Both the position numbers and the translations under genes were made by a program. The notes beneath the pieces were generated by a model. That model was not told where the DNA came from, did not search any database, and saw only the letters and a list, made by a program, of their open reading frames with translations. Below, in pieces: positions 2,732 through 33,117 of a stretch of 34,249 nt of DNA. This stretch comes from a virus. Where the stretch lies: positions 1 through 34,249 of IMG/VR virus record IMGVR_UViG_3300035698_003740. One strand, written 5' to 3'. How positions within the stretch are numbered: position 1 is the stretch's first letter; each line of letters starts with the position of its first letter.

Positions 2732-3562
2732 ATGGCTAAACAATCGTTAAAAGATATAATTAAATTAGAGTATCAGAAGTGTGCCGGAGACCCGATATAC
2801 TTTATGAAAAAGTATTGTATGATTCAACATCCGGTACGAGGAAAGATACCTTTTCACTTATTTCCATTTCAAGAAAAAACCGTAACTCAGTTTCACGAAG
2901 AAAGATATAACATTATTCTAAAATCCCGTCAAACAGGTATCTCTACCTTAACGGCAGGTTTTTCTTTATGGAAAATGTTATTCAACCAAGATTTTAATGT
3001 TCTTGTAATTGCAACTAAACAAGAGGTTGCAAAAAACTTGGTAACCAAAGTAAGGGTAATGAATCAATACCTACCAAGTTGGTTAAAACAAACCACAGTA
3101 GAAGATAACAAACTATCCTTACGATACTCCAATGGTTCTCAGATTAAAGCAACTTCAGCTGCAAGTGATGCTGGTCGTTCTGAAGCACTATCTCTTTTGG
3201 TATTTGATGAAGCAGCATTTATCGATAAAATTGAAGATATATGGGTATCTGCACAATCAACACTATCAACGGGTGGTAACGCAATTATTCTTTCAACTCC
3301 AAATGGGGTAGGTAATTTCTTCCACAAAACTTGGGTAGGTGCAGAAGATGGTTCCAATACCTTCAACACTATCAGATTACATTGGTCAGTTCATCCAGAA
3401 AGAAATCAAACTTGGAGAGATGAACAAGAAGTGCTTTTAGGACCAAAGGGAGCAGCACAGGAATGTGATTGTTTGTGGGGAGATTCTATGGTTACTGTGA
3501 AAAACATTGAAACTGGTAAAATTGAAGAAATTTCATTAGAAGAATTATATGATAATTTATAA
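2732..3562 (+). CDS. terL: Large terminase N-terminal half fused to split N-intein (gp17-like)
   Basis: Residues 1-246 are the ATPase domain of a T4 gp17-type packaging motor. They carry a P-loop KSRQTGIST (64-72), Walker B LLVFDEA (155-161, D159-E160) and the coupling motif LSTP (187-190). The P-loop lacks Lys at the usual GK(S/T) place (I70) and has Lys64 at its start, as in lambda gpA. After ...AAQECD (D246) the protein continues as an intein N-terminus, CLWGDSMVTV, running 30 residues to a TAA at 3560-3562. The rest of the terminase is on a separate ORF at 3786-4979. Trans-splicing would join D246 to the Cys of CDFVSSG and give a 528-residue motor, close to the family length. Start at 2732 follows the previous stop by one base; no Shine-Dalgarno sequence. 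Confidence 0.92.
   Translation: MAKQSLKDIIKLEYQKCAGDPIYFMKKYCMIQHPVRGKIPFHLFPFQEKTVTQFHEERYNIILKSRQTGISTLTAGFSLWKMLFNQDFNVLVIATKQEVAKNLVTKVRVMNQYLPSWLKQTTVEDNKLSLRYSNGSQIKATSAASDAGRSEALSLLVFDEAAFIDKIEDIWVSAQSTLSTGGNAIILSTPNGVGNFFHKTWVGAEDGSNTFNTIRLHWSVHPERNQTWRDEQEVLLGPKGAAQECDCLWGDSMVTVKNIETGKIEEISLEELYDNL
3470..3559 (+). other. Split intein, N-terminal fragment (30 aa, block A only)
   Basis: Starts with the catalytic Cys1 of CLWGDSMVTV, the classical block A pattern (C-L-x-G-D-T/S). It ends with a short helix-like tail, SLEELYDNL, and a stop codon. It contains no block B. The length and the terminase location match the atypically split AceL-TerL type of intein known from metagenomes (N-fragment about 25 residues). 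Confidence 0.9.
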
Positions 3563-3796
3563 TTTTTATACTTACATTACAATTTTAGACATGCGGAAAA
3601 TGGTGGTGAATTTCATATAAAAGAATTGGGATATTATGTTGATGGATATGATGTTGAAAAGAATGTAGTAATTGAAATAGATAAACCACATCATTTTAAT
3701 AGTGATGGTAGTTTAACGAAAAAAGATATTATTTGTGAAAACGAAATAACGAAATTATTAAAATGTAAGTTTGTACGTATTAGATATGAAAAATGA
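3563..3796 (+). pseudogene. Remnant of a Vsr-like homing endonuclease
   Basis: In the same frame as the N-intein ORF, after its stop, 77 sense codons run to a TGA at 3794-3796. They encode a typical C-terminal piece of a Vsr/PD-(D/E)xK-like homing endonuclease: HAENGGEFHIKELGYYVDGY, then NVVIEIDKPHHF, a KKDI..ENEI helix and CKFVRIRYEK. There is no ATG in frame, and the N-terminal helix expected before HAENGGEF is missing. The motif usually reading DExHH has Lys instead of Glu (DKPHH). I therefore call it a decayed gene. Its last 11 bases overlap the C-intein ORF start (ATG 3786), the layout expected if an intact endonuclease ORF once preceded the C-fragment. Family assignment is by remembered pattern and should be searched. 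Confidence 0.75.
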
Positions 3797-4130
3797 TTAT
3801 ACACTTAAACTAAATAAAAAATATAAAATTCTTACGCCAAGTGGATATCAATCATTTGGCGGAATCCGCGTACTTGATAAACCACATCACTATGATATTG
3901 AGTTATCTAATGGCAAAACAGTAAAATGTTCAGATACACATCAATTTATTTATAAGGGAAACAGTTTACTAGCAAATCAATTAACTATCGGCAGTGAAAT
4001 TGATGGAAACGATGATACTATTGTAACGATTGATAAAATTACATATAGAACTGATGTGATTAAGTTATATGATGTTGTTGAAGTGGATAATGGTAATATT
4101 TTCAATGTAGATGGCATTGTTTCACATAAT
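3786..4130 (+). other. Split intein, C-terminal fragment (115 aa, blocks B, F and G)
   Basis: Begins MKNDYTLKLNKKYKILTPSG and contains the block B Thr-x-His (SDTHQFI), a block F-like LYDVVEVDNGN, and block G IVSHN ending in the cyclising Asn115, followed by Cys+1. No endonuclease domain lies inside. The split point between blocks A and B makes it an unusual, asymmetric split intein. Confidence 0.9.
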
Positions 4131-4979
4131 TGTGATTTCGTATCTTCTGGAGATACTGTTATAGACCCTCAACTTCTAATGTTTTACAAAGAAACTTATT
4201 GTCAGCCACCAATTGAAAAGACTGGGTTTGATGGAAACCTTTGGAAATGGGAATATCCAAATTATCAGAAATCTTATATGGTAGTTGCGGATGTTGCCAG
4301 AGGTGATGGAGGAGATTTTTCTTCTGCTCATGTTATTGATATTGAATCTGCAACTCAAGTAGCAGAATATAAAGGAAAGTTAGGAACAAAAGAATTTGGA
4401 AATTTTTTAGTTTCACTCTCAACCGATTATAACAACGCTCTTTTGGTAATTGAAAATGCAAATATTGGTTGGGCAGTAATTCAACAAGTAATTGATAGAA
4501 GTTATCCAAACTTATTTTATATGAGTAAAGATTTAAAGTATGTAGATGTAGAAAATCAACTTACTAACAAATATCGTTCAGAAGATAAAAATTTAAAACC
4601 AGGATTTTCAACTACAACTAAAACACGACCACTTATTATTTCTAAAATGGAACAATATATAAGAGAAAAAACAATTACAATTCGTTCAACTCGTTTGATA
4701 GATGAATTGTTTACTTTTATATGGAATGGAAATCGTGCAGAAGCAATGAGAGGTTATAATGATGATTTGGTAATGGCACTTTCAATTGGGTTGTGGGTAA
4801 GAGATACTGCACTTAGATTAAGACAAGAAGGAATTGATTTAACAATGAATACATTGGGAAGTATAGGACACTCAACAACCGATTTGGGTGGGTTTGGTGG
4901 CAACTCTTCAATGGATTACAATCCTTGGGAAATGAATATTAATGGAAGTCAAGAAGATTTGACTTGGTTGATAAAGTAG
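3786..4979 (+). CDS. terL: Split C-intein fused to large terminase C-terminal half (nuclease domain)
   Basis: Residues 1-115 are the C-fragment of the split intein and residues 116-397 the terminase nuclease domain. Splicing residues are clear: ...DGIVSHN115 followed by C116 (CDFVSSGD), with block B CSDTHQFI at 48-55. The nuclease is RNase H-like with acidic motifs VADVARGDGGD (D169), LLVIENANIG (E223) and GYNDDLVMA (D326/D327), as in gp17-type terminases. It cuts concatemeric DNA at the start and end of head filling. I chose ATG 3786 over the in-frame TTG at 3771 because it leaves the usual compact C-intein. No Shine-Dalgarno sequence; translation may have been coupled to the endonuclease relic whose stop overlaps. 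The C-terminal tail (about 350-397) is Gly/Ser-rich. Confidence 0.92.
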   Translation: MKNDYTLKLNKKYKILTPSGYQSFGGIRVLDKPHHYDIELSNGKTVKCSDTHQFIYKGNSLLANQLTIGSEIDGNDDTIVTIDKITYRTDVIKLYDVVEVDNGNIFNVDGIVSHNCDFVSSGDTVIDPQLLMFYKETYCQPPIEKTGFDGNLWKWEYPNYQKSYMVVADVARGDGGDFSSAHVIDIESATQVAEYKGKLGTKEFGNFLVSLSTDYNNALLVIENANIGWAVIQQVIDRSYPNLFYMSKDLKYVDVENQLTNKYRSEDKNLKPGFSTTTKTRPLIISKMEQYIREKTITIRSTRLIDELFTFIWNGNRAEAMRGYNDDLVMALSIGLWVRDTALRLRQEGIDLTMNTLGSIGHSTTDLGGFGGNSSMDYNPWEMNINGSQEDLTWLIK

Positions 4980-5028: not shown

Positions 5029-5706
5029 ATGAGAAAAGATAAAAAATATCATTTTATTTATAAAACAACAAATCTGCTAAGTGGTAAGTATTATTATGGA
5101 TTACATAGTACGGATAATTTGGAAGATGGGTATTTGGGTAGTGGTAGACGATTACGTTACTCCCTAAACAAACATGGTAAGGATAATCACAAACGAGAAA
5201 TTATAGAATTCTGTAATTCGAGAAAGGAACTATTGATTCGCGAAAAGGATATTGTAACTATTAATGAAATCGCTAAAGAAGATTGTATAAATCTAATTGT
5301 TGGTGGATCATCATCATCACTTGGACATAGCATCGATACTCGTGAAAAAATGAGTTTATCTAAATGTGGAATCAAATTTACTGATGAACATAGATATAAT
5401 ATTAGTGAATCTCTTAAAGGACATATTGTTGCAGATAAGACTCGTAATAAAATAAGAGAATCATTATTGGGTATTGCATTATCAGATGAACGAAAGGAAA
5501 AAATATCAAAAACAAAGAAGATACAGTATTCCGATAAGACAAATCATCCCTTTTTTGGTAAAACTCATAGTGATGTAACTAAGATGAAAATGAGTAAAGC
5601 ACAAATTGGAATTCCTAAGCGAAAACTAACTTGTCCTCATTGTGGTAAGGTTGGTGGGGAGCCTCAGTTAAAACAATGGCACTTTGATAGATGTAAATTA
5701 CTATAA
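5029..5706 (+). CDS. Free-standing GIY-YIG homing endonuclease
   Basis: Residues 8-90 are a GIY-YIG nuclease domain: FIYKTTN (the GIY strand, I10-Y11), YYYGLHS (the YIG strand, Y23-G24), then GSGRRLRYSLNKHG with the catalytic Arg region and IREKDIV with the likely metal-binding E72. Residues about 100-195 hold NUMOD3-like repeats that bind DNA (EKMSLSKCG, EHRYNISESLKG, NKIRESLLG, MKMSKAQIG). The C-terminus has a small zinc finger, C202-x2-C205 with H218 and C222. This is the plan of Seg-type endonucleases of T4-like phages, which copy themselves into a cut allele of a related phage. It lies between terminase and the next head gene, with its own promoter motif. No Shine-Dalgarno sequence. It looks intact. 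Confidence 0.88.
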   Translation: MRKDKKYHFIYKTTNLLSGKYYYGLHSTDNLEDGYLGSGRRLRYSLNKHGKDNHKREIIEFCNSRKELLIREKDIVTINEIAKEDCINLIVGGSSSSLGHSIDTREKMSLSKCGIKFTDEHRYNISESLKGHIVADKTRNKIRESLLGIALSDERKEKISKTKKIQYSDKTNHPFFGKTHSDVTKMKMSKAQIGIPKRKLTCPHCGKVGGEPQLKQWHFDRCKLL

Positions 5707-24083: not shown

Positions 24084-27035
24084 ATGGCACAAATTATAAG
24101 ACACAGAAAAGGGGTCTTGGAAAGCGTTGCATCTGCTACCAAAAGAAAAGCAGAATTACTTGTAGTAACAGGTTCTTCAGTTTCAGCAATAGACACAGGT
24201 CTATTATTCGTTGGTACAGAAGGTGGAGCGGTAACACCAGCAAACAAGATATTGACAGGAGCAACAACACCAGATTTAACTGGAGCTGCTTATGATACAT
24301 CTATTGATGGTATTCCATTTTACAACACCTCAGAAAAAAAATACTATATCCTTAAAAAGGGTGGTAACGTAGAAGTACAAGCAACTGCAAACACTGGTGG
24401 AACTGGAATCGTTTCTTCTTCTGCACAGATTGATGGACTTGGATTTTTAAAAGTTCAAGGAGATTCAGTAGTTTCTGGTTCTTCTCAAATTACAATTGGA
24501 GATACTACTGGTTTCTCTACATTCTCTTCTTCACTAAAAGCTAGTGATGATGCGCAAGATGTACGATTAGGTAACTTAGAAACATTCTCATCTTCTTTAG
24601 GTGATGGATTTGCTACTGATACTGAATTATCTGCAGTATCTGCTGCATTTGATTCTACAATTGATGCATTAACTACTGATGAAATAGCAGAAGGTACAAA
24701 CCTTTATTATACTGATGTAAGAGTTAAAACTAAATTAACTGCAGAAGGTGTAATTTCTGGTTCATCTCAAGTAGTATTAAATGCTGCTGATTTAACAGGA
24801 TTTGATACTGATGATGTTGCTGAAGGTACAAACCTTTATTATACTGATACACGAGTTAAAACTAAATTAGATGCCGATGGTGTAATCTCTGGTTCTTCTC
24901 AAGTACAGATTGATTCAGTAACTGGATTTACTGCATATTCTTCTTCAGCTGATTCTCGTACTGCTGCTTTAGAATCTGCGGTTGGTGCTGGTTCTAACAT
25001 TGATGGAAGATTAACTTCATTAGAAACATTTAGTGCTTCTGCAGAAGCTAACGATACTGAATTATTCGCTACAGCTTCTAGTCAACAAGCTACATTAGAT
25101 GCAATCTTATTATCATCTGATGCTGATAAAGATTCATTCGCTGAAATTGTAACTTTAATTAACTCAGTAGATACTACAAACGATACAGCATTTGCTGGAT
25201 TTGTAACTTCTTCTAACGCTGCACAAGGTGTTCAAGATGGTAGATTAACTTCATTGGAAACCGAAAGTGGTTCAATTCAATCAGCACAAGGTGTTCAAAA
25301 TGGTAGATTAACTTCATTAGAAGCTGCAACTGGTTCGATTGCAACTGCACAAGGTGTTCAAGATGGTAGATTGGATAATTTAGAATTAACCACTGCTTCT
25401 ATTGATACTGCACAAGGTGTTCAAGATGATAGATTAGATGGTTTAGAATCATTCTCTTCTTCATTGGCAACTGGATTCGAAACAACTGGTAGAGGAATTG
25501 TTTCTGGTTCAACTCAAACAATCGCTCACTTAGTTGGAAACGATATCGTTACAAATGGTATCTCTGGTTCTTCTTTAGATATTACTGGAAACGCTAAAAT
25601 TGATGGTAACCTTGTATTAGGTGGTAACATTACTATTGGTGATGCTACTTCTGATACTATCTCATTTGGTGGTGAAATTACTTCTGATATAATTCCTTCG
25701 GTAACTGATTCTATTGATTTAGGTTCTGCTACTAGAACATTGGCTGAGGTTCATTCAACTAACTTCTTCGGTACTACTAATGGTACAGTAAACGCAACTA
25801 ACAACATAGTTTCTTCTTCTGCTTCAACCGCAAATGTTGAAATGACTGTTTCTGCTGGTGTTGTTTCTGCTGAACTTAAAGGTGGTGTTGTTTCTGGTTC
25901 TGCACAAGTTGTTTCTTTACTTGCTGACCAAGCTACTGATTTCGGTACTGGTAGAGTAAGTGGTGATGATTTTGGAGATACTGCTGGAACTTCAACTTTT
26001 ACGGGTTCATTCCAAGGTGATGGTTCAGGTTTAAGTGGATTAGTAACTGATTTACGTATTTCTGGTTCAACTGGAAACGATGTAGTATCTTTATTAAATG
26101 ATGATTTATCATTTGCTGGTGGAACTGCAATATCAGTTGATGTAACTGATAACACAATTACAGTTAACGCTTCTGATGCTTCTACCGCTGCTAAAGGTAT
26201 TGCTTCATTCTCATCTACCAACTTCGCAGTTGCTAGTGGAAATGTAACAATCGTAGATGGTGGTGTTGCTGCTACTAAATTGAACGCTGATGTAGCTGGA
26301 ACAGGTATCTCTCTTAACGGAGCTGATAACTCAATCGAAGTTGATTATGGTTCATCTGCAGGGAATGCAGTACAAGGTAATACAACAATTTCTGTTAGTG
26401 GAACTGCTAACGAAATTGAAATTACTGGAACTACTTCTCAAGCTATTGGTGGTGGTGTATCTTATACGGTAGGTTTACCTTCCGATGTAACTATTGGAAA
26501 TGACTTATCTGTTACTTCTGATGCAGCTGTTGGTGGAAACTTAACTGTAACGGGTAACCTTTCAGTTTTAGGTACAACTACAACTGTTGATTCAACTACT
26601 GTACAAATTGGTGATAACGTAATCGAATTAAACTATGGTGGTGCACAAACTACTGCTGGTTTATTAGTTACTGATTCAACTGCACCAAATACAGCAAGTG
26701 GTTCTCTACTTTGGAATGGTACTAATGATGTTTGGACAGGTGGGGCTTTGGGTTCTGAAAAAGAATTCGCAAGATTAAATTCTGCACCAACTGCTAACTT
26801 CGTTCAGAAATCAGATGCTAATGGATTATTAGTTGATTCTGTACTTTCTGATGATGGTACTGATGCAACGTTTAGTGGTGATGTTATTGTTGATGGTTTA
26901 TCTACTTCTTCATTCTTATTTGCAGATGCTAACAAACAATTAACTTCAATAGTACCTTCTAACGCTGGTGATGTAATTCAATGGAATGGTGCATCGTTCG
27001 TTGCTTCTAACGAATTGGATGGTGGTACGTTCTAA
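24084..27035 (+). CDS. Tail fibre protein with SGSSQ and coiled repeats (983 aa)
   Basis: The N-terminus (MAQIIRHRKGVLESVASATK, ELLVVTGSS, LLFVGTEGGA) is an attachment module shared in form with the next two fibre genes. Repeats follow: VISGSSQ(V/I) turns, EGTNLYYTDVRVKTKL (twice in this gene), and heptad-like units GVQDGRLTSLE, GVQNGRLTSLE, GVQDGRLDNLE and GVQDDRLDGLE typical of trimeric fibres. The later part has a DSIDLGSATRTLAEVHS module, an IGDNVIELNYGG module also in the next gene, and the end WNGASFVASNELDGGTF. No enzymatic domain is seen. It probably forms a trimeric host-recognition or whisker fibre. AGGAAA precedes the ATG and a strong terminator follows. Confidence 0.85.
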   Translation: MAQIIRHRKGVLESVASATKRKAELLVVTGSSVSAIDTGLLFVGTEGGAVTPANKILTGATTPDLTGAAYDTSIDGIPFYNTSEKKYYILKKGGNVEVQATANTGGTGIVSSSAQIDGLGFLKVQGDSVVSGSSQITIGDTTGFSTFSSSLKASDDAQDVRLGNLETFSSSLGDGFATDTELSAVSAAFDSTIDALTTDEIAEGTNLYYTDVRVKTKLTAEGVISGSSQVVLNAADLTGFDTDDVAEGTNLYYTDTRVKTKLDADGVISGSSQVQIDSVTGFTAYSSSADSRTAALESAVGAGSNIDGRLTSLETFSASAEANDTELFATASSQQATLDAILLSSDADKDSFAEIVTLINSVDTTNDTAFAGFVTSSNAAQGVQDGRLTSLETESGSIQSAQGVQNGRLTSLEAATGSIATAQGVQDGRLDNLELTTASIDTAQGVQDDRLDGLESFSSSLATGFETTGRGIVSGSTQTIAHLVGNDIVTNGISGSSLDITGNAKIDGNLVLGGNITIGDATSDTISFGGEITSDIIPSVTDSIDLGSATRTLAEVHSTNFFGTTNGTVNATNNIVSSSASTANVEMTVSAGVVSAELKGGVVSGSAQVVSLLADQATDFGTGRVSGDDFGDTAGTSTFTGSFQGDGSGLSGLVTDLRISGSTGNDVVSLLNDDLSFAGGTAISVDVTDNTITVNASDASTAAKGIASFSSTNFAVASGNVTIVDGGVAATKLNADVAGTGISLNGADNSIEVDYGSSAGNAVQGNTTISVSGTANEIEITGTTSQAIGGGVSYTVGLPSDVTIGNDLSVTSDAAVGGNLTVTGNLSVLGTTTTVDSTTVQIGDNVIELNYGGAQTTAGLLVTDSTAPNTASGSLLWNGTNDVWTGGALGSEKEFARLNSAPTANFVQKSDANGLLVDSVLSDDGTDATFSGDVIVDGLSTSSFLFADANKQLTSIVPSNAGDVIQWNGASFVASNELDGGTF

Positions 27036-27192: not shown

Positions 27193-30100
27193 ATGGCTAC
27201 AATATTAAAATTAAGAAGAGGTATATCTACCCCAATCTCTCTCGTAGAATCTGAGTTATTTTTTAACCAAAATGATACTACGTTAATAGTAGGTACAACT
27301 TCAGGATTCATAACCCTAGTAAAAATAGGAGAAAACACAGGTAGTATTTCATTTACCGGTGATATCACTGCAAACAATATGATACTTACTGGCGATTTGA
27401 CAGTAAAGGATATAACTTTAAGTGGTAATATCTATGTTGGTGATGAAGTATCTGATACAATTACAGTAACGGGTCAATTTGATTCAAATTTACTACCATC
27501 CTCATCGGCAGAGTTTGATTTGGGTTCCACTTCTAAAAAATGGAATAATTTATATGTAGTTTCTGCATCAATTGAAAATATTTCTTTACCTGATAGTAAT
27601 ATTGTTTCTTCTTCTCAACAAATAAGTGGTTATAATACATTTCTTGAAATTAATGGTGATAATGTAGTTAGTGGTTCTTCTCAAATTAATGTAAATAACA
27701 CAGAAAACTTTACACCATTCTCATCTTCAGTAGATACACGATTTGGTATCTTAAACACATATACATCATCAACTGATTTAAGATTAATCAGCATTGAAAC
27801 TGAAACTGGTTCAATTGAAACCGAACAAGGTATTCAAGATGACAGATTAGATAATATAGAAACATTTACTGCATCACTTTCTACTACATTTGAAGAAATT
27901 GCTTCTTCAACTCATACTTTAGTTAGTGGTTCATCTCAAATTACAAATGGAAGTACTATACTTTCATCTTCTAACGAAAACTTTACAACATTCTCAAGTT
28001 CAGTAGATACTCGTTTAGATGAGGTAGAATCTACAAGTTCTTTGAATGAAACAAATATAACTGAATTATTTTCTACTGCATCTGACCACGAAGGTAGAGT
28101 AGTTGAATTGGAATCAACTGGTTCAGAGCACGAAGATAGAATTGATTTATTAGAATCGTTCTCATCTTCATTAGATGATACATTTGTAACAACTACTGAA
28201 TTACATGAAGCAACTTCATCTTTATCTGCATCATTAACCGAAACTGATGTTGATTTTGAAGATAGAATAGATACTTTAGAAACAACTTTCAGTTCTTCGG
28301 TAGATTCAAGATTAGATGCACAAGAATCATTTTCAGAATCATTAGATAATACATTCTTAAACACGAACGGTGATAATGTTATAAGTGGTTCAGACCAAGT
28401 AACTTCTTCATTAGATTTAAGATATTTAGAAATTAATGGAGATAGTGTAGTTAGTGGTTCAGACCAAGTAACTTCTTCATTAGATTTACTATATGAAGAA
28501 ATTGCATCTGCTACTCATACTTTGATTAGTGGTTCAACTCAATTTACAGATGGAAGTGGAATACTTTCTTCTTCAAACGAAAACTTTACAACTTTTTCAT
28601 CTTCAATTGATGGTAGAGTTGATACAATAGAAACAACCTTTTCAACTTCGGTAGATTCAAGATTAGATGAGATTGAAACGACATTTTCAACTTCAGTAGA
28701 TGACCAACTTACACAAATTCATGCATATACTTCATCACTTAAAACTTCAATTGATGTAAGTGGTAATGATTTAATTGTATTAGGAAACTTAACTGTTCAA
28801 GGAACTCAAACTTCTTTGAATACTACTGAAACTTTTATTGAAGATAAAACTTTAACAATAGCAAGTGGTTCAACTACTTCTGCAGAAGCAGATGGAGCTG
28901 GATTAATTATTGATGGGGCAAACAAATCTATTACATGGAATCATACAGACCAATTATTTGAATTAAATGGAAAAGTTTCATCTTCGGTTGGATTTAAAGG
29001 TGATGGTTCTGAATTAACAGGTGTAACTGCGGATAGTGTTGATTTTACTAATATTACAAACAAACCAACATTAGTGAGTGGTTCATCTCAAGTATCTTAT
29101 GTTGGATTATCAAACATTCCAAATGGAATTGTAAGTGGTTCTTCTCAAGTAAATGCAGATACTATTACCAACTTTGATTCAAATGTAAAAGATAAAATGA
29201 ATCTCGATAATGTAATATCAGGTTCATCTCAAATACTTGATGGGAGTGGATTACTTTCATCTTCTAACGAAAACTTTACAACATTCTCAAGTTCAGTAGA
29301 TATTCGTTTAGATGAGATAGAAACAACCTTCTCAACTTCGGTAGATTCACGATTAGATTTTATTGAAGGAACTTTCAGTTCTTCCGTAGATTCAAGATTA
29401 GATGCACAAGAAACATTCTCGGCATCTTTGGATAACGAGTTCTTAAACACTAATGGTGATAATGTAGTGAGTGGTTCAGACCAAGTAACTCAATCATTGG
29501 ATTTAAGATATGAAGAAATTGGTTCTTCAACCCATACTTTAGTTAGTGGTTCATCTCAAGTAGATTATAATTCTATTCAAAATCAACCAACAACTATTAC
29601 TACCGAACAAGCGAATCAAATAACTTCTAACAACTCAAAGGTTGGTTATACAGATGAGTTAGTTAAAACAAAATTAAATTTAGAAACTGTAATTAGTGGT
29701 TCATCTCAAGTAGATTATAACTCTATTCAAAATCAACCAACAACAATTACAACACAACAATCATCTGATATTACATCTAACAACTCAAAAGTTGGTTATA
29801 CTGATACTTTAGTAAAAACTAAATTAGATTTAGATGGTGTAATATCAAGTTCAGTACAAGTTAATGCTGATTCAATTACTAACTTTGATAATAATGTAAA
29901 AACTAAATTAGATTTAGATAATGTAGTTAGTGGTTCAGTTTATTCATCTGATAATCAAGGTATTTTAACCGCAAGTATTAATGGAATAGAATTTACAACT
30001 GATTTAGGATTATCAATCACATCAGAACCAACTTTTGTTGGATTATCACTAACTTCATTAGATGTTGATTCATCTCAAAATGAATTTACTACTTTATTAT

Positions 30101-33100
30101 TAAGTTCTTCTAATGAAATTATTCAAGCTGAATTAGGTTCAGCTGCATTCTATCATGTATCAAACTCAGTTGATATTAGTTTAGATACTGGTAGTTTTAA
30201 CGATAGTGTTTTATTAACCGCTGGTGCAGTTAAAACATATGTAAATGAATATGTACAAATTGCTGGGGCAGCCGATATTACTGGAGTAACCGCTGGTGAT
30301 GGTTTAAGTGGTGGTGCAGACAGTGGGGAAGCAACTTTAACATTAGATACTGGTTCTCAACACTTTATAGATGGTGTAACTGGTATTGCACCAACTTTAC
30401 CTGATGGATTAGTTAGTGGTTCAGACCAAGTAACTTCTTCACTTGATACACGATATGTAAACGTATCAGGTGATACTATAAGTGGTGATTTAATCATTAG
30501 TGGGGATTTAACTGTAAATGGTACAACTACAACTATTAATACTACAAACTTAAATGTAGAAGATAATGTAATAGAACTTAACTATGGTGGTTCTGCTACC
30601 AATGGTGGTATTTTAGTAAAAGATACTAATGGTACTCTAACAAGTGGTTCTTTATTATGGGATAGTACAACTGATTCTTGGATTGCCGGCCCTTTAGGTT
30701 CTGAAACAAGAATTATAACCACTGCCGATAATGTAATTACTGATTCAAATATTGATTCTAAGATAGATTTAAGATTAGCAGCAGAGAATGTACATAGTGG
30801 TTCTTATTTAGGAACGGCAACTACCTCTGATTTATTTGAAATGACCAATCTTTATTATACCGATTTACGAGTAAAAACTAAATTGGATAATGATGGTGTA
30901 ATTAGTGGTTCATCTCAAGTACAAATAGATTCAGTAAGTGGATTTACTTCATTTTCATCTTCAGTAGATAATAGAATTGATTTATTAGAATCATTCTCAT
31001 CATCTTTAGATACAGGATTTGTAACTGAAACGGAATTAAACACTGCAACCCAATCATTACAAGATTCTATTGATTTAAAATTAGATACAACAACATATAC
31101 AACTGATTCTTCATCATTCGATAGTAGAATTGATTTATTAGAAGGAGTAACTTCCGAAAATCCTTTAACGTTTAGTGATACATCTACTATTGATTTAACA
31201 AGAGTAGGTGATACTATTACCGCAGATGTAATTGGTGGGGTAGTAAGTGGATCATCTCAAATTTCATATCCTTCTATCTTAGATATTCCAAGTGGAATTG
31301 TTAGTGGTTCTTCTCAAGTAATTGGTATATTAGATTCACTTAACACATATACATCATCAAATGATACTTTAAATACTACTCAGAATAGTAGATTAGATAG
31401 TTTAGAAACTTACACTGGTTCAGTTGATTCTTTATATGAAGAAATATCATCTGCTACTCATACGTTGGTTAGTGGTTCGGAACAAATATCATATCCACTT
31501 ATATCAAACATCCCAAGTGGAATAGTTAGTGGGTCATCTCAAGTAATCGATATTTTGAGTTCACTAAACTCATATACATCATCAAATGATACCAATCAAG
31601 GTACACAGAATGTTCGTTTAGATAATATAGAAACATTTACCGCTTCGGTTGATTCTCTATATGAAGAAATTGCTTCTTCAACTCATACTTTAGTTAGTGA
31701 GTCTATTCAAATTACCAACAATAGTGGTATTCTTTCTTCCTCAAATGAAGATTTCACCACATTCTCATCTTCGGTAGATACGAGAATAGATTCATTAGAA
31801 GGTGATATTCATACACATACAAACAAAGCAAACTTAGATACAATAAACCAAAACTTATCAACTACCTCGGATGTAGTATTTAAAGATATACAAATCAATG
31901 GTACTGGTTCTTTTGGTTCTGATGTAACTATTTATGGTGATTTAACTGTATTAGGGACTGAAACTATAATCAATACTACCAATCTTGCTATTGAAGATAA
32001 TATGATTTATCTAAATAGTGGTTCCGGCGATACAAATGTTGATTTAGGTTGGGCAGGTAACTATAATGATGGTACTTATGCTCACGCTGGTATCTTCAGA
32101 GATGCATCCGATGGTGGTATCTTTAAATTCTACGATGGATATACTCCTGAACCTGGAGCTAATATTGATACTACTCATGCTTCATTTAACTTGGCAGATA
32201 TACAAGTAAATACTGGTTCACTCAACCGAATAGAATTAACATCGGGTAGTTTATCTCGTTCGTACATAACATATGATTCTGTTGCCGGAACCGCCATAGT
32301 TTCTGATACTGGTATTTCATTATTAACCGCAGGTGGCGGAGATGGTATAGTAATCTCATCAAATGGTAATACAACTATTTTTGGTGCACTTGCACTAGAA
32401 GATATTCCATCCGCTGGAAGTGCAACTGCTGCTTTTGTAGTAGGTGCTGGAAATATAGTATCTCAAAGAACTCTTGGTTCAAATGCATTTGATTCAACTG
32501 CATACGAACCTGTTGCATCCGCTTCAAATAATTTGGTTAGTGGTTCATCTCAAATATCATATACTGGTATTACGGATAAACCAACTATTCCAACCAACAA
32601 CAACCAATTAACAAATGGTGCTGGGTATATTACTTCATTTGATATCACTACCCAAACCGATGGTAAATATTTAAGAAGTGATACAACTGATACCGCAACT
32701 GGAATTATAACATTCTCAAACACAACTCAATCAACAAATATAACAACTGGTGGAGTTATCGTTAGTGGTGGTGTTGGTATTGCAAAAACTCTTAATGTTG
32801 GTGAAGATGTAATTGCATTCGCATCCTCTGATAGAAGGTTAAAAGATAATATTTTACCAATCCAAAATCCTTTACAAAAAATTAACTCAATTGGTGGGTA
32901 TAGTTTTGATTGGAATGTGGAAAAACAACATATTTATAAAGGTAAGGATTATGGGGTTATTGCTCAAGAAATCGAAGAAATTCTACCTGAATTAGTAGAT
33001 ACGAGAGAAAATGGGTATAAAGCCGTAAAATACGATAAGTTAGTATCACTTTTAATAGAGGGCATTAAAGAATTATCATCAGAAGTAGAACAACTAAAAC

Positions 33101-33117
33101 AACAAATTAACAAATAG
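27193..33117 (+). CDS. Long tail fibre with C-terminal S74 chaperone (1974 aa)
   Basis: The N-terminus MATILKLRRGISTPISLVES, with LFFNQNDTTLIVG, is the shared attachment module. The shaft has about twenty copies of VSGSSQ(V/I) or SGSDQV, runs of ETTFS(S/T)SVDSRLD(E/A), and a 150-base tandem duplication. The last 97 residues (from S1878, SSDRRLKDNILPIQNP, then GYSFDWN, DYGVIAQEIEEILPELV and AVKYDKLVSLLIEGIKEL) are a peptidase S74 intramolecular chaperone. This domain folds the trimer and then cuts itself off just before the conserved Ser-Asp. It is therefore likely a receptor-binding long fibre. AGGAAG precedes the ATG, and two promoter motifs and a terminator lie in the upstream gap. Confidence 0.9.
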   Translation: MATILKLRRGISTPISLVESELFFNQNDTTLIVGTTSGFITLVKIGENTGSISFTGDITANNMILTGDLTVKDITLSGNIYVGDEVSDTITVTGQFDSNLLPSSSAEFDLGSTSKKWNNLYVVSASIENISLPDSNIVSSSQQISGYNTFLEINGDNVVSGSSQINVNNTENFTPFSSSVDTRFGILNTYTSSTDLRLISIETETGSIETEQGIQDDRLDNIETFTASLSTTFEEIASSTHTLVSGSSQITNGSTILSSSNENFTTFSSSVDTRLDEVESTSSLNETNITELFSTASDHEGRVVELESTGSEHEDRIDLLESFSSSLDDTFVTTTELHEATSSLSASLTETDVDFEDRIDTLETTFSSSVDSRLDAQESFSESLDNTFLNTNGDNVISGSDQVTSSLDLRYLEINGDSVVSGSDQVTSSLDLLYEEIASATHTLISGSTQFTDGSGILSSSNENFTTFSSSIDGRVDTIETTFSTSVDSRLDEIETTFSTSVDDQLTQIHAYTSSLKTSIDVSGNDLIVLGNLTVQGTQTSLNTTETFIEDKTLTIASGSTTSAEADGAGLIIDGANKSITWNHTDQLFELNGKVSSSVGFKGDGSELTGVTADSVDFTNITNKPTLVSGSSQVSYVGLSNIPNGIVSGSSQVNADTITNFDSNVKDKMNLDNVISGSSQILDGSGLLSSSNENFTTFSSSVDIRLDEIETTFSTSVDSRLDFIEGTFSSSVDSRLDAQETFSASLDNEFLNTNGDNVVSGSDQVTQSLDLRYEEIGSSTHTLVSGSSQVDYNSIQNQPTTITTEQANQITSNNSKVGYTDELVKTKLNLETVISGSSQVDYNSIQNQPTTITTQQSSDITSNNSKVGYTDTLVKTKLDLDGVISSSVQVNADSITNFDNNVKTKLDLDNVVSGSVYSSDNQGILTASINGIEFTTDLGLSITSEPTFVGLSLTSLDVDSSQNEFTTLLLSSSNEIIQAELGSAAFYHVSNSVDISLDTGSFNDSVLLTAGAVKTYVNEYVQIAGAADITGVTAGDGLSGGADSGEATLTLDTGSQHFIDGVTGIAPTLPDGLVSGSDQVTSSLDTRYVNVSGDTISGDLIISGDLTVNGTTTTINTTNLNVEDNVIELNYGGSATNGGILVKDTNGTLTSGSLLWDSTTDSWIAGPLGSETRIITTADNVITDSNIDSKIDLRLAAENVHSGSYLGTATTSDLFEMTNLYYTDLRVKTKLDNDGVISGSSQVQIDSVSGFTSFSSSVDNRIDLLESFSSSLDTGFVTETELNTATQSLQDSIDLKLDTTTYTTDSSSFDSRIDLLEGVTSENPLTFSDTSTIDLTRVGDTITADVIGGVVSGSSQISYPSILDIPSGIVSGSSQVIGILDSLNTYTSSNDTLNTTQNSRLDSLETYTGSVDSLYEEISSATHTLVSGSEQISYPLISNIPSGIVSGSSQVIDILSSLNSYTSSNDTNQGTQNVRLDNIETFTASVDSLYEEIASSTHTLVSESIQITNNSGILSSSNEDFTTFSSSVDTRIDSLEGDIHTHTNKANLDTINQNLSTTSDVVFKDIQINGTGSFGSDVTIYGDLTVLGTETIINTTNLAIEDNMIYLNSGSGDTNVDLGWAGNYNDGTYAHAGIFRDASDGGIFKFYDGYTPEPGANIDTTHASFNLADIQVNTGSLNRIELTSGSLSRSYITYDSVAGTAIVSDTGISLLTAGGGDGIVISSNGNTTIFGALALEDIPSAGSATAAFVVGAGNIVSQRTLGSNAFDSTAYEPVASASNNLVSGSSQISYTGITDKPTIPTNNNQLTNGAGYITSFDITTQTDGKYLRSDTTDTATGIITFSNTTQSTNITTGGVIVSGGVGIAKTLNVGEDVIAFASSDRRLKDNILPIQNPLQKINSIGGYSFDWNVEKQHIYKGKDYGVIAQEIEEILPELVDTRENGYKAVKYDKLVSLLIEGIKELSSEVEQLKQQINK
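29548..29847 (+). repeat. 150-base tandem duplication in the fibre shaft
   Basis: Two consecutive 150-base units (29548-29697 and 29698-29847), each encoding 50 residues that begin GSSQVDYNSIQNQPTTITT and include NNSKVGYTD. They differ at scattered positions, mostly around codons for TEQANQ versus TQQSSD. A third, shorter, related unit follows. Confidence 0.8.

What the first reader, a model, noticed from the sequence alone, without database searches (positions are those of the whole stretch)
3470..4130. Atypical, naturally split intein breaks the terminase gene
The terminase is on two ORFs. The first ends with 30 intein residues (block A, CLWGDSMVTV) and the second starts with a 115-residue intein piece holding blocks B, F and G (SDTHQFI, IVSHN/C). 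The cut lies between blocks A and B, much earlier than in common split inteins. This is the AceL-TerL-like class known from metagenomic terminases, and the present one looks like a distinct member. Essential packaging would depend on trans-splicing between D246 and Cys+1.
Basis: partly seen in the sequence, partly recalled or inferred. Interest (0 to 1): 0.88.

Follow-up and report, generated by a model that had tools for sequence, protein, structure and literature searches.

The report
Split intein breaks phage terminase gene
A T4-like phage carries its essential DNA-packaging motor gene in two pieces, each ending in half of a self-splicing protein element that is predicted to stitch the motor together after translation, and between the pieces lies the dead remnant of the selfish DNA-cutting gene that sits in this gap in related phages.

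Summary
The terL N-ORF (2732-3562) ends in a 30-aa intein N-fragment. A second ORF (ATG 3786 to 4979) starts with a 115-aa intein C-fragment, then Cys+1 and the rest of TerL. The intein is homologous to the AceL/GOS-TerL ("Cat") atypical split inteins (CatC, PDB 6DSL, E=1e-15), with the same A/B split and the same TerL insertion site.

In 39 related loci that gene is (nearly) full length; a near-identical phage (L006, 99% extein identity) has a larger but broken copy.

Of 114 non-redundant loci, 111 are split at this same spot: 56 carry a GIY-YIG HEG there, 39 an unrelated NUMOD3/DUF559-like HEG, and 16 lack a full HEG but remain split. Seven related records of 54-304 kb contain no other TerL. 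Intein dN/dS (window vs L006) is 0.10-0.16. Trans-splicing is very likely, though not shown experimentally.

The class is known; cultured phage PX29 is annotated with the same layout. New points: a large second clade, a second HEG type, a HEG-decay series, and a 15-bp copy of the splice-junction DNA beside the HEG in most relatives (absent here).

The parts
2732..3469 (+). TerL N-extein (ATPase part), 246 aa, ends QECD
   Evidence: PF03237 8e-14, phrog_5989 1e-46; 96% identical to uninterrupted TerL of L047-L049
3470..3562 (+). Intein N-fragment (30 aa, block A, Cys1) and stop TAA 3560-3562
   Evidence: aligns to CatN of 6DSL; 93% identical to L006 IntN with the same stop
3563..3796 (+). Decayed 3' remnant (77 codons) of a homing-endonuclease-like gene, in frame with terL-N after its stop and overlapping the IntC start by 11 nt
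   Evidence: homologous to the C-terminus of ~240-aa HEGs in the same gap of L007, L009, L022, L023, L040; 29% of full length
3786..4130 (+). Intein C-fragment (115 aa, blocks B, F, G; ends VSHN)
   Evidence: 6DSL chain B E=1.2e-15, profile 9e-25; dN/dS about 0.15 vs L006
4131..4979 (+). Cys+1 and TerL C-extein (nuclease part), with stop
   Evidence: phrog_24361 4e-15; 99% identical to L006
5029..5706 (+). Free-standing GIY-YIG/NUMOD3 homing endonuclease gene directly after terL; neighbour, not part of the intein
   Evidence: phrog_314 2.6e-43, NUMOD3 2.4e-9; absent at this place in L006, L047-L049 and L058

Best explanation
terL of this T4-like phage is broken by a naturally split, atypically split (between blocks A and B) intein of the AceL/GOS/Cat-TerL family. 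TerL-N-IntN and IntC-TerL-C are translated as two proteins. IntN docks into IntC to complete the HINT fold, and class-1 splicing (Cys1, block-B Ser/His, block-G His-Asn, Cys+1) joins D246 to Cys247 and gives the 528-aa motor. The break goes with homing endonuclease genes that sit between the halves as separate genes; here that gene has decayed to its last 77 codons, so this is a split intein late in the homing cycle, kept because terL is essential. Shown here: anatomy, homology, purifying selection on both fragments, the HEG remnant and its fuller relatives, absence of another TerL in seven larger relatives. Inferred: splicing activity, order of events, essentiality.
For: 6DSL CatC/CatN matches; catalytic positions C1, S49, H52, D96, H114, N115, C+1 kept; same site and split in 110 other loci; a contiguous relative at the same site models as HINT with VidaL and Cat as best PDB matches; dN/dS IntN 0.10, IntC 0.15-0.16; L006 with a larger broken HEG and 39 loci with (nearly) full HEG in the gap; HEG-plus/HEG-minus near pairs L147/L153, L156/L163, L178/L179 all remain split; only the split TerL in seven records of 54-304 kb.
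Against: No splicing assay. The window record is a 34-kb fragment, so a second terL elsewhere in this genome is not excluded. Part of the low dN/dS may have accrued before these inteins came into this phage pair (intein dS exceeds extein dS). No recognised ribosome-binding site was tested for the IntC start.
Confidence: 0.88

Rival explanations
1. The two TerL halves work as a non-covalent two-chain motor, as reported for HEG-split NrdA of phage Aeh1 and split gp43 of phage 25 (PMC2988022); the intein pieces are inert leftovers.
For: Precedents in T4-like phages; the break lies between the ATPase and nuclease parts of TerL.
Against: Inert leftovers should decay, yet both intein fragments keep the catalytic residues across 111 split loci and show dN/dS of 0.10-0.16.
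Confidence: 0.05
2. The locus is a broken (pseudogene) or misassembled terL, and a functional terL lies elsewhere in the genome.
For: The HEG is truncated and carries changes at conserved positions; the record is a fragment.
Against: L006 has the same stop and open ORFs; the TerL halves have dN/dS about 0.04. All 16 split loci lacking a full HEG still keep both halves. Seven larger relatives have no second TerL.
Confidence: 0.04
3. The gap is bridged at RNA or ribosome level (self-splicing intron, or bypassing as in T4 gene 60) rather than by protein splicing.
For: Introns interrupt terL in other phages, e.g. ICP1 (PMC10448857).
Against: No Rfam match in the window or the gap; the flanks are intein fragments ending in Cys1 and His-Asn/Cys+1; relatives at the same site have gaps from -26 to about 1000 nt, or none, with IntC often in a frame different from IntN.
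Confidence: 0.02

Closest known systems
AceL-TerL / GOS-TerL / Cat consensus atypical split inteins (PDB 6DSL; PMC11766414)
   Same: HINT intein in TerL at the homologous site; short IntN (25-37 aa) and large IntC; split between blocks A and B; Cys+1.
   Different: 37% IntC identity to CatC; different TerL lineage; the gap of this clade holds a NUMOD3/DUF559-like HEG (here a remnant), whereas the Cat-clade gap holds a GIY-YIG HEG.
Aeromonas phage PX29 genes 17A/17B (GU396103) and Vibrio phage VP-1 terL (MH363700)
   Same: Cultured phages with an N-intein, endonuclease and C-intein breaking terL at the corresponding site; in PX29 annotated as such.
   Different: About 38% IntC identity; their endonuclease looks GIY-YIG and is fused to IntC (PX29) or IntN (VP-1) rather than a decayed separate gene of another type.
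'Fractured genes' (Dassa et al. 2009, known to me from memory and from citations; paper not held)
   Same: Split intein with a homing endonuclease gene between the halves.
   Different: Break between blocks A and B; the HEG could not be assigned to the Vsr-like (I-Bth0305I) family described there; in the window it is only a remnant.
I-TevI/II/III operators in T4 introns (PMC2988022)
   Same: A homing-site-like DNA sequence just upstream of the HEG; in T4 it serves autorepression (15/20 nt identity for I-TevI).
   Different: Here found in relatives only (the window lost it), in a split intein and with another nuclease type; binding untested.

Membership tests
Atypical TerL split intein (AceL/GOS/Cat) | Homologous HINT splicing domain | tested here: met
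   6DSL E=1.2e-15, profile 9e-25; contiguous relative L002 models as HINT
Atypical TerL split intein (AceL/GOS/Cat) | Break between blocks A and B, IntN of about 25-37 aa | tested here: met
   IntN 30 aa, IntC 115 aa
Atypical TerL split intein (AceL/GOS/Cat) | Catalytic residues Cys1, block-B Ser/His, terminal His-Asn, Cys+1 | tested here: met
   C1; S49, H52, H114, N115, C116 invariant in A1
Atypical TerL split intein (AceL/GOS/Cat) | Same insertion site in TerL | tested here: met
   QECD|C..CDF vs VEFE|C..CEFLGS
Atypical TerL split intein (AceL/GOS/Cat) | Trans-splicing activity | not testable with these tools
   needs a reporter assay or mass spectrometry
Fractured gene (split intein with intervening HEG) | Endonuclease gene between the two halves | tested here: inconclusive
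   window: remnant only, 29% of full length; (nearly) full in 39 relatives of the clade
Fractured gene (split intein with intervening HEG) | HEG of the Vsr-like (I-Bth0305I) family | tested here: inconclusive
   only weak Pfam MTES_1575/DUF559 hits below cut-off and no significant fold match
Group I or II intron | Intron RNA family match in or around the gap | tested here: not met
   no Rfam match, gathering or E<=1

The most novel reading that the evidence does not exclude
The A|B break of TerL inteins is a product of endonuclease-gene invasion that happened, or was re-occupied, more than once (GIY-YIG in one clade, NUMOD3/DUF559-like in the other). In the second clade the endonuclease gene carries a 15-bp copy of its presumed homing site (CARGARTGYGANTGY, the QECDC codons) beside its start, acting as an operator like that of I-TevI. 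The window shows the end state in which most of the gene and the operator are gone and the split remains.
Probability: 0.35. Interest if true: 0.66.

Novelty: new member of a known kind. Interest (0 to 1): 0.52.

Why it matters
Split inteins are tools for protein ligation and labelling; atypical ones with a short IntN are rare and useful, and this search lists about 50 natural ones in a clade I found no description of. The loci also show, in matched pairs with and without the endonuclease, that a naturally split intein can outlive the selfish gene that sits in its break. That makes the origin and maintenance of naturally split inteins testable, including in cultured phages such as PX29 and VP-1.

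Tried and rejected
Group I/II intron in the gap: no Rfam match. The GIY-YIG HEG downstream of terL as close kin of the Cat-clade gap HEG: 26% identity, E=0.016, not supported. Nuclease fold by structure: model moderate (pLDDT 75, pTM 0.45) and no significant PDB match. Translation of the 15-bp junction mimic as an N-terminal peptide of the HEG: possible in L022, L137 and L149, but in L006, L134, L147, L156 and L178 its frame has no start codon and ends within a few codons. Selection on the HEG remnant (dN/dS 0.11 vs L006) was considered as evidence of retained function and not accepted: most of that divergence may predate the deletion, and two positions invariant in seven fuller copies are changed (E208 to K, R225 to C). 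Junction-mimic search in the Cat clade and in the QE|C-type loci: negative. A bacterial and archaeal genome scan with the IntC profile found no relative. A first dN/dS estimate for the remnant was out of register and was redone.

Full report
OBSERVATION. The terL N-ORF runs 2732-3562 and encodes 246 TerL residues (...AAQECD) followed by CLWGDSMVTVKNIETGKIEEISLEELYDNL and TAA. A second ORF from ATG 3786 (or TTG 3771) to 4979 encodes 115 intein residues ending VSHN, then Cys and the TerL C-half. The TerL identity is clear (PF03237 8e-14; phrog_5989 1e-46; phrog_24361 4e-15). IntC matches the C-fragment of the consensus atypical split intein Cat, PDB 6DSL, at 1.2e-15 (37% identity). IntN aligns to CatN over 29 residues, weakly (E=0.28) as expected for 30 residues.

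THE GAP. Read in the frame of terL-N after its stop, 3563-3796 is open and encodes ...HYNFRHAENGGEFHIKELGYYVDGYDVEKNVVIEIDKPHHFNSDGSLTKKDIICENEITKLLKCKFVRIRYEK. This is the C-terminal part of a phage nuclease family found in 41 loci. Members carry NUMOD3-like motifs and a domain weakly like MTES_1575/DUF559 restriction nucleases, and sit free-standing or inside the TerL intein. In the window it has no ATG and holds 29% of the full length, and two positions invariant in seven fuller copies (E208, R225) are K and C. It is read here as a decayed homing endonuclease gene (HEG).

CLOSE RELATIVES. L006, a contig with 99% identical TerL halves, has the same IntN stop, a longer but internally deleted and frameshifted HEG, and an 84% identical IntC. 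Extein dS is 0.08-0.12 but intein dS is 0.28 (IntN) and 0.51 (IntC), at dN/dS 0.10-0.16. So the intein is under purifying selection, and it has probably been exchanged horizontally between close phages. All 80 contigs nearest by the TerL N-half have an unbroken terL: the element is sporadic.

SURVEY. Scans with IntC and HEG profiles and with CatC gave 114 non-redundant TerL loci with both ends of the intein. 111 are split at the same place and 3 are contiguous (L002, L004, L194). In the AceL/GOS/Cat clade 56 of 59 have a GIY-YIG HEG in the gap (PF01541 7.6e-7 for one). In the window's clade 39 have the NUMOD3/DUF559-like HEG over at least 70% of its length. 16 loci, the window included, are split without a full HEG of either type; two of these (L203, L271) have long gaps that may hold other or partial genes. 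Close pairs show the loss directly: L147 (HEG) and L153 (none, ORFs overlapping by 14 nt), L156 and L163, L178 and L179. On the intein tree, HEG presence changes at least 17 times, and the contiguous forms L002 and L004 lie among split forms; but the tree has only 136 columns and no root, so direction is not settled. In L169 and L237 IntN is fused to the HEG in one frame.

MECHANISM. Larger records with the split form (G001-G007, 54-304 kb) contain only the two TerL halves and no other TerL; their completeness is not certified. Catalytic positions C1, S49, H52, D96, H114, N115 and C+1 are kept. A contiguous relative at the same site (L002) models as a HINT domain at mean pLDDT 93, with VidaL and Cat as best PDB matches. 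The simplest reading is trans-splicing of D246 to C247, as reported for AceL, GOS and Cat-TerL (review PMC11766414). For this phage it is inferred. A non-covalent two-chain TerL (as for Aeh1 NrdA, PMC2988022) is the main rival and does not explain selection on the intein residues.

A FURTHER SIGNAL IN THE RELATIVES. In 25 of 35 window-clade loci with a large HEG, a 15-nt stretch resembling the empty splice-junction DNA (codons Q-E-C-D-C; CARGARTGYGANTGY) lies near the IntN stop, in most 13-26 nt after it and just before the HEG start (p<=0.01 per locus against shuffles). None of 4 loci with the shifted QE|C site and none of 56 Cat-clade loci have it. In 55 loci (915 kb counting both strands) the pattern with up to one mismatch occurs 26 times in this place, 47 times at the junction itself and once elsewhere. 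The pattern was written after seeing the sequences and the loci are related, so these counts are descriptive. The stretch is more conserved than its flanks (1.6 bits against 0.85 and 0.63 per column), occurs in all three frames relative to IntN, and is often untranslatable. T4 intron endonucleases have homing-site-like operators upstream of their genes (PMC2988022). That this stretch is an operator is a hypothesis. The window has lost it together with the HEG 5' part.

PRIOR KNOWLEDGE AND NOVELTY. The class is known (AceL, GOS, Cat). Cultured Aeromonas phage PX29 is annotated with 17A 'contains putative N-intein' and 17B 'contains putative GIY-YIG endonuclease and C-intein', and Vibrio phage VP-1 has the corresponding site. 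The papers found here do not describe the NUMOD3/DUF559-like clade, the two HEG types or the junction mimic, but the primary AceL, GOS and 'fractured genes' papers were not available. I therefore call the window's intein a new member of a known kind.

Noticed in passing
L006, L007, L009, L022, L023, L128, L134, L137, L146, L149, L156, L185 and others; near the IntN stop: A 15-bp copy of the TerL splice-junction DNA (CARGARTGYGANTGY) sits beside the start of the HEG, more conserved than its flanks and in varying frames; possible operator or homing-site mimic.
   Followed up: partly
L174, L189, L193, L194, L198, L237, L271: In these loci the intein appears inserted two codons upstream (QE|C instead of QECD|C), where the downstream Cys codon is replaced, so the upstream Cys would serve as +1.
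   Followed up: partly
window 5029-5706: A free-standing GIY-YIG/NUMOD3 homing endonuclease gene lies directly after terL and is absent at this place in L006 and intein-free relatives; it could co-mobilise the intein whose own HEG is dead.
   Followed up: partly
L169 about 3660-4504; L237 about 3809-4647: IntN is fused in frame to the HEG, with IntC as a separate, slightly overlapping ORF.
   Followed up: partly
L359 (Vibrio phage VP-1) about 2000-2200; L360 (Vibrio phage vB_VmeM-32) about 1730-2160: Cultured phages show further inteins in terL: the end of one just before the Walker A-like region in VP-1, and a contiguous one at another site (DE|C...C-AFIEN) in VmeM-32.
   Followed up: no
L014 1615-2484 and L026 705-1532: Free-standing members of the same HEG family lie directly upstream (L014) or downstream (L026) of terL, in L014 as a second copy beside the intein-borne one.
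   Followed up: no
window 24084-27035 and 27193-33117: Two long repetitive SGS/FSSS-rich proteins, probably structural; the 1974-aa one ends in a sequence that by eye resembles a tail-spike intramolecular chaperone.
   Followed up: no
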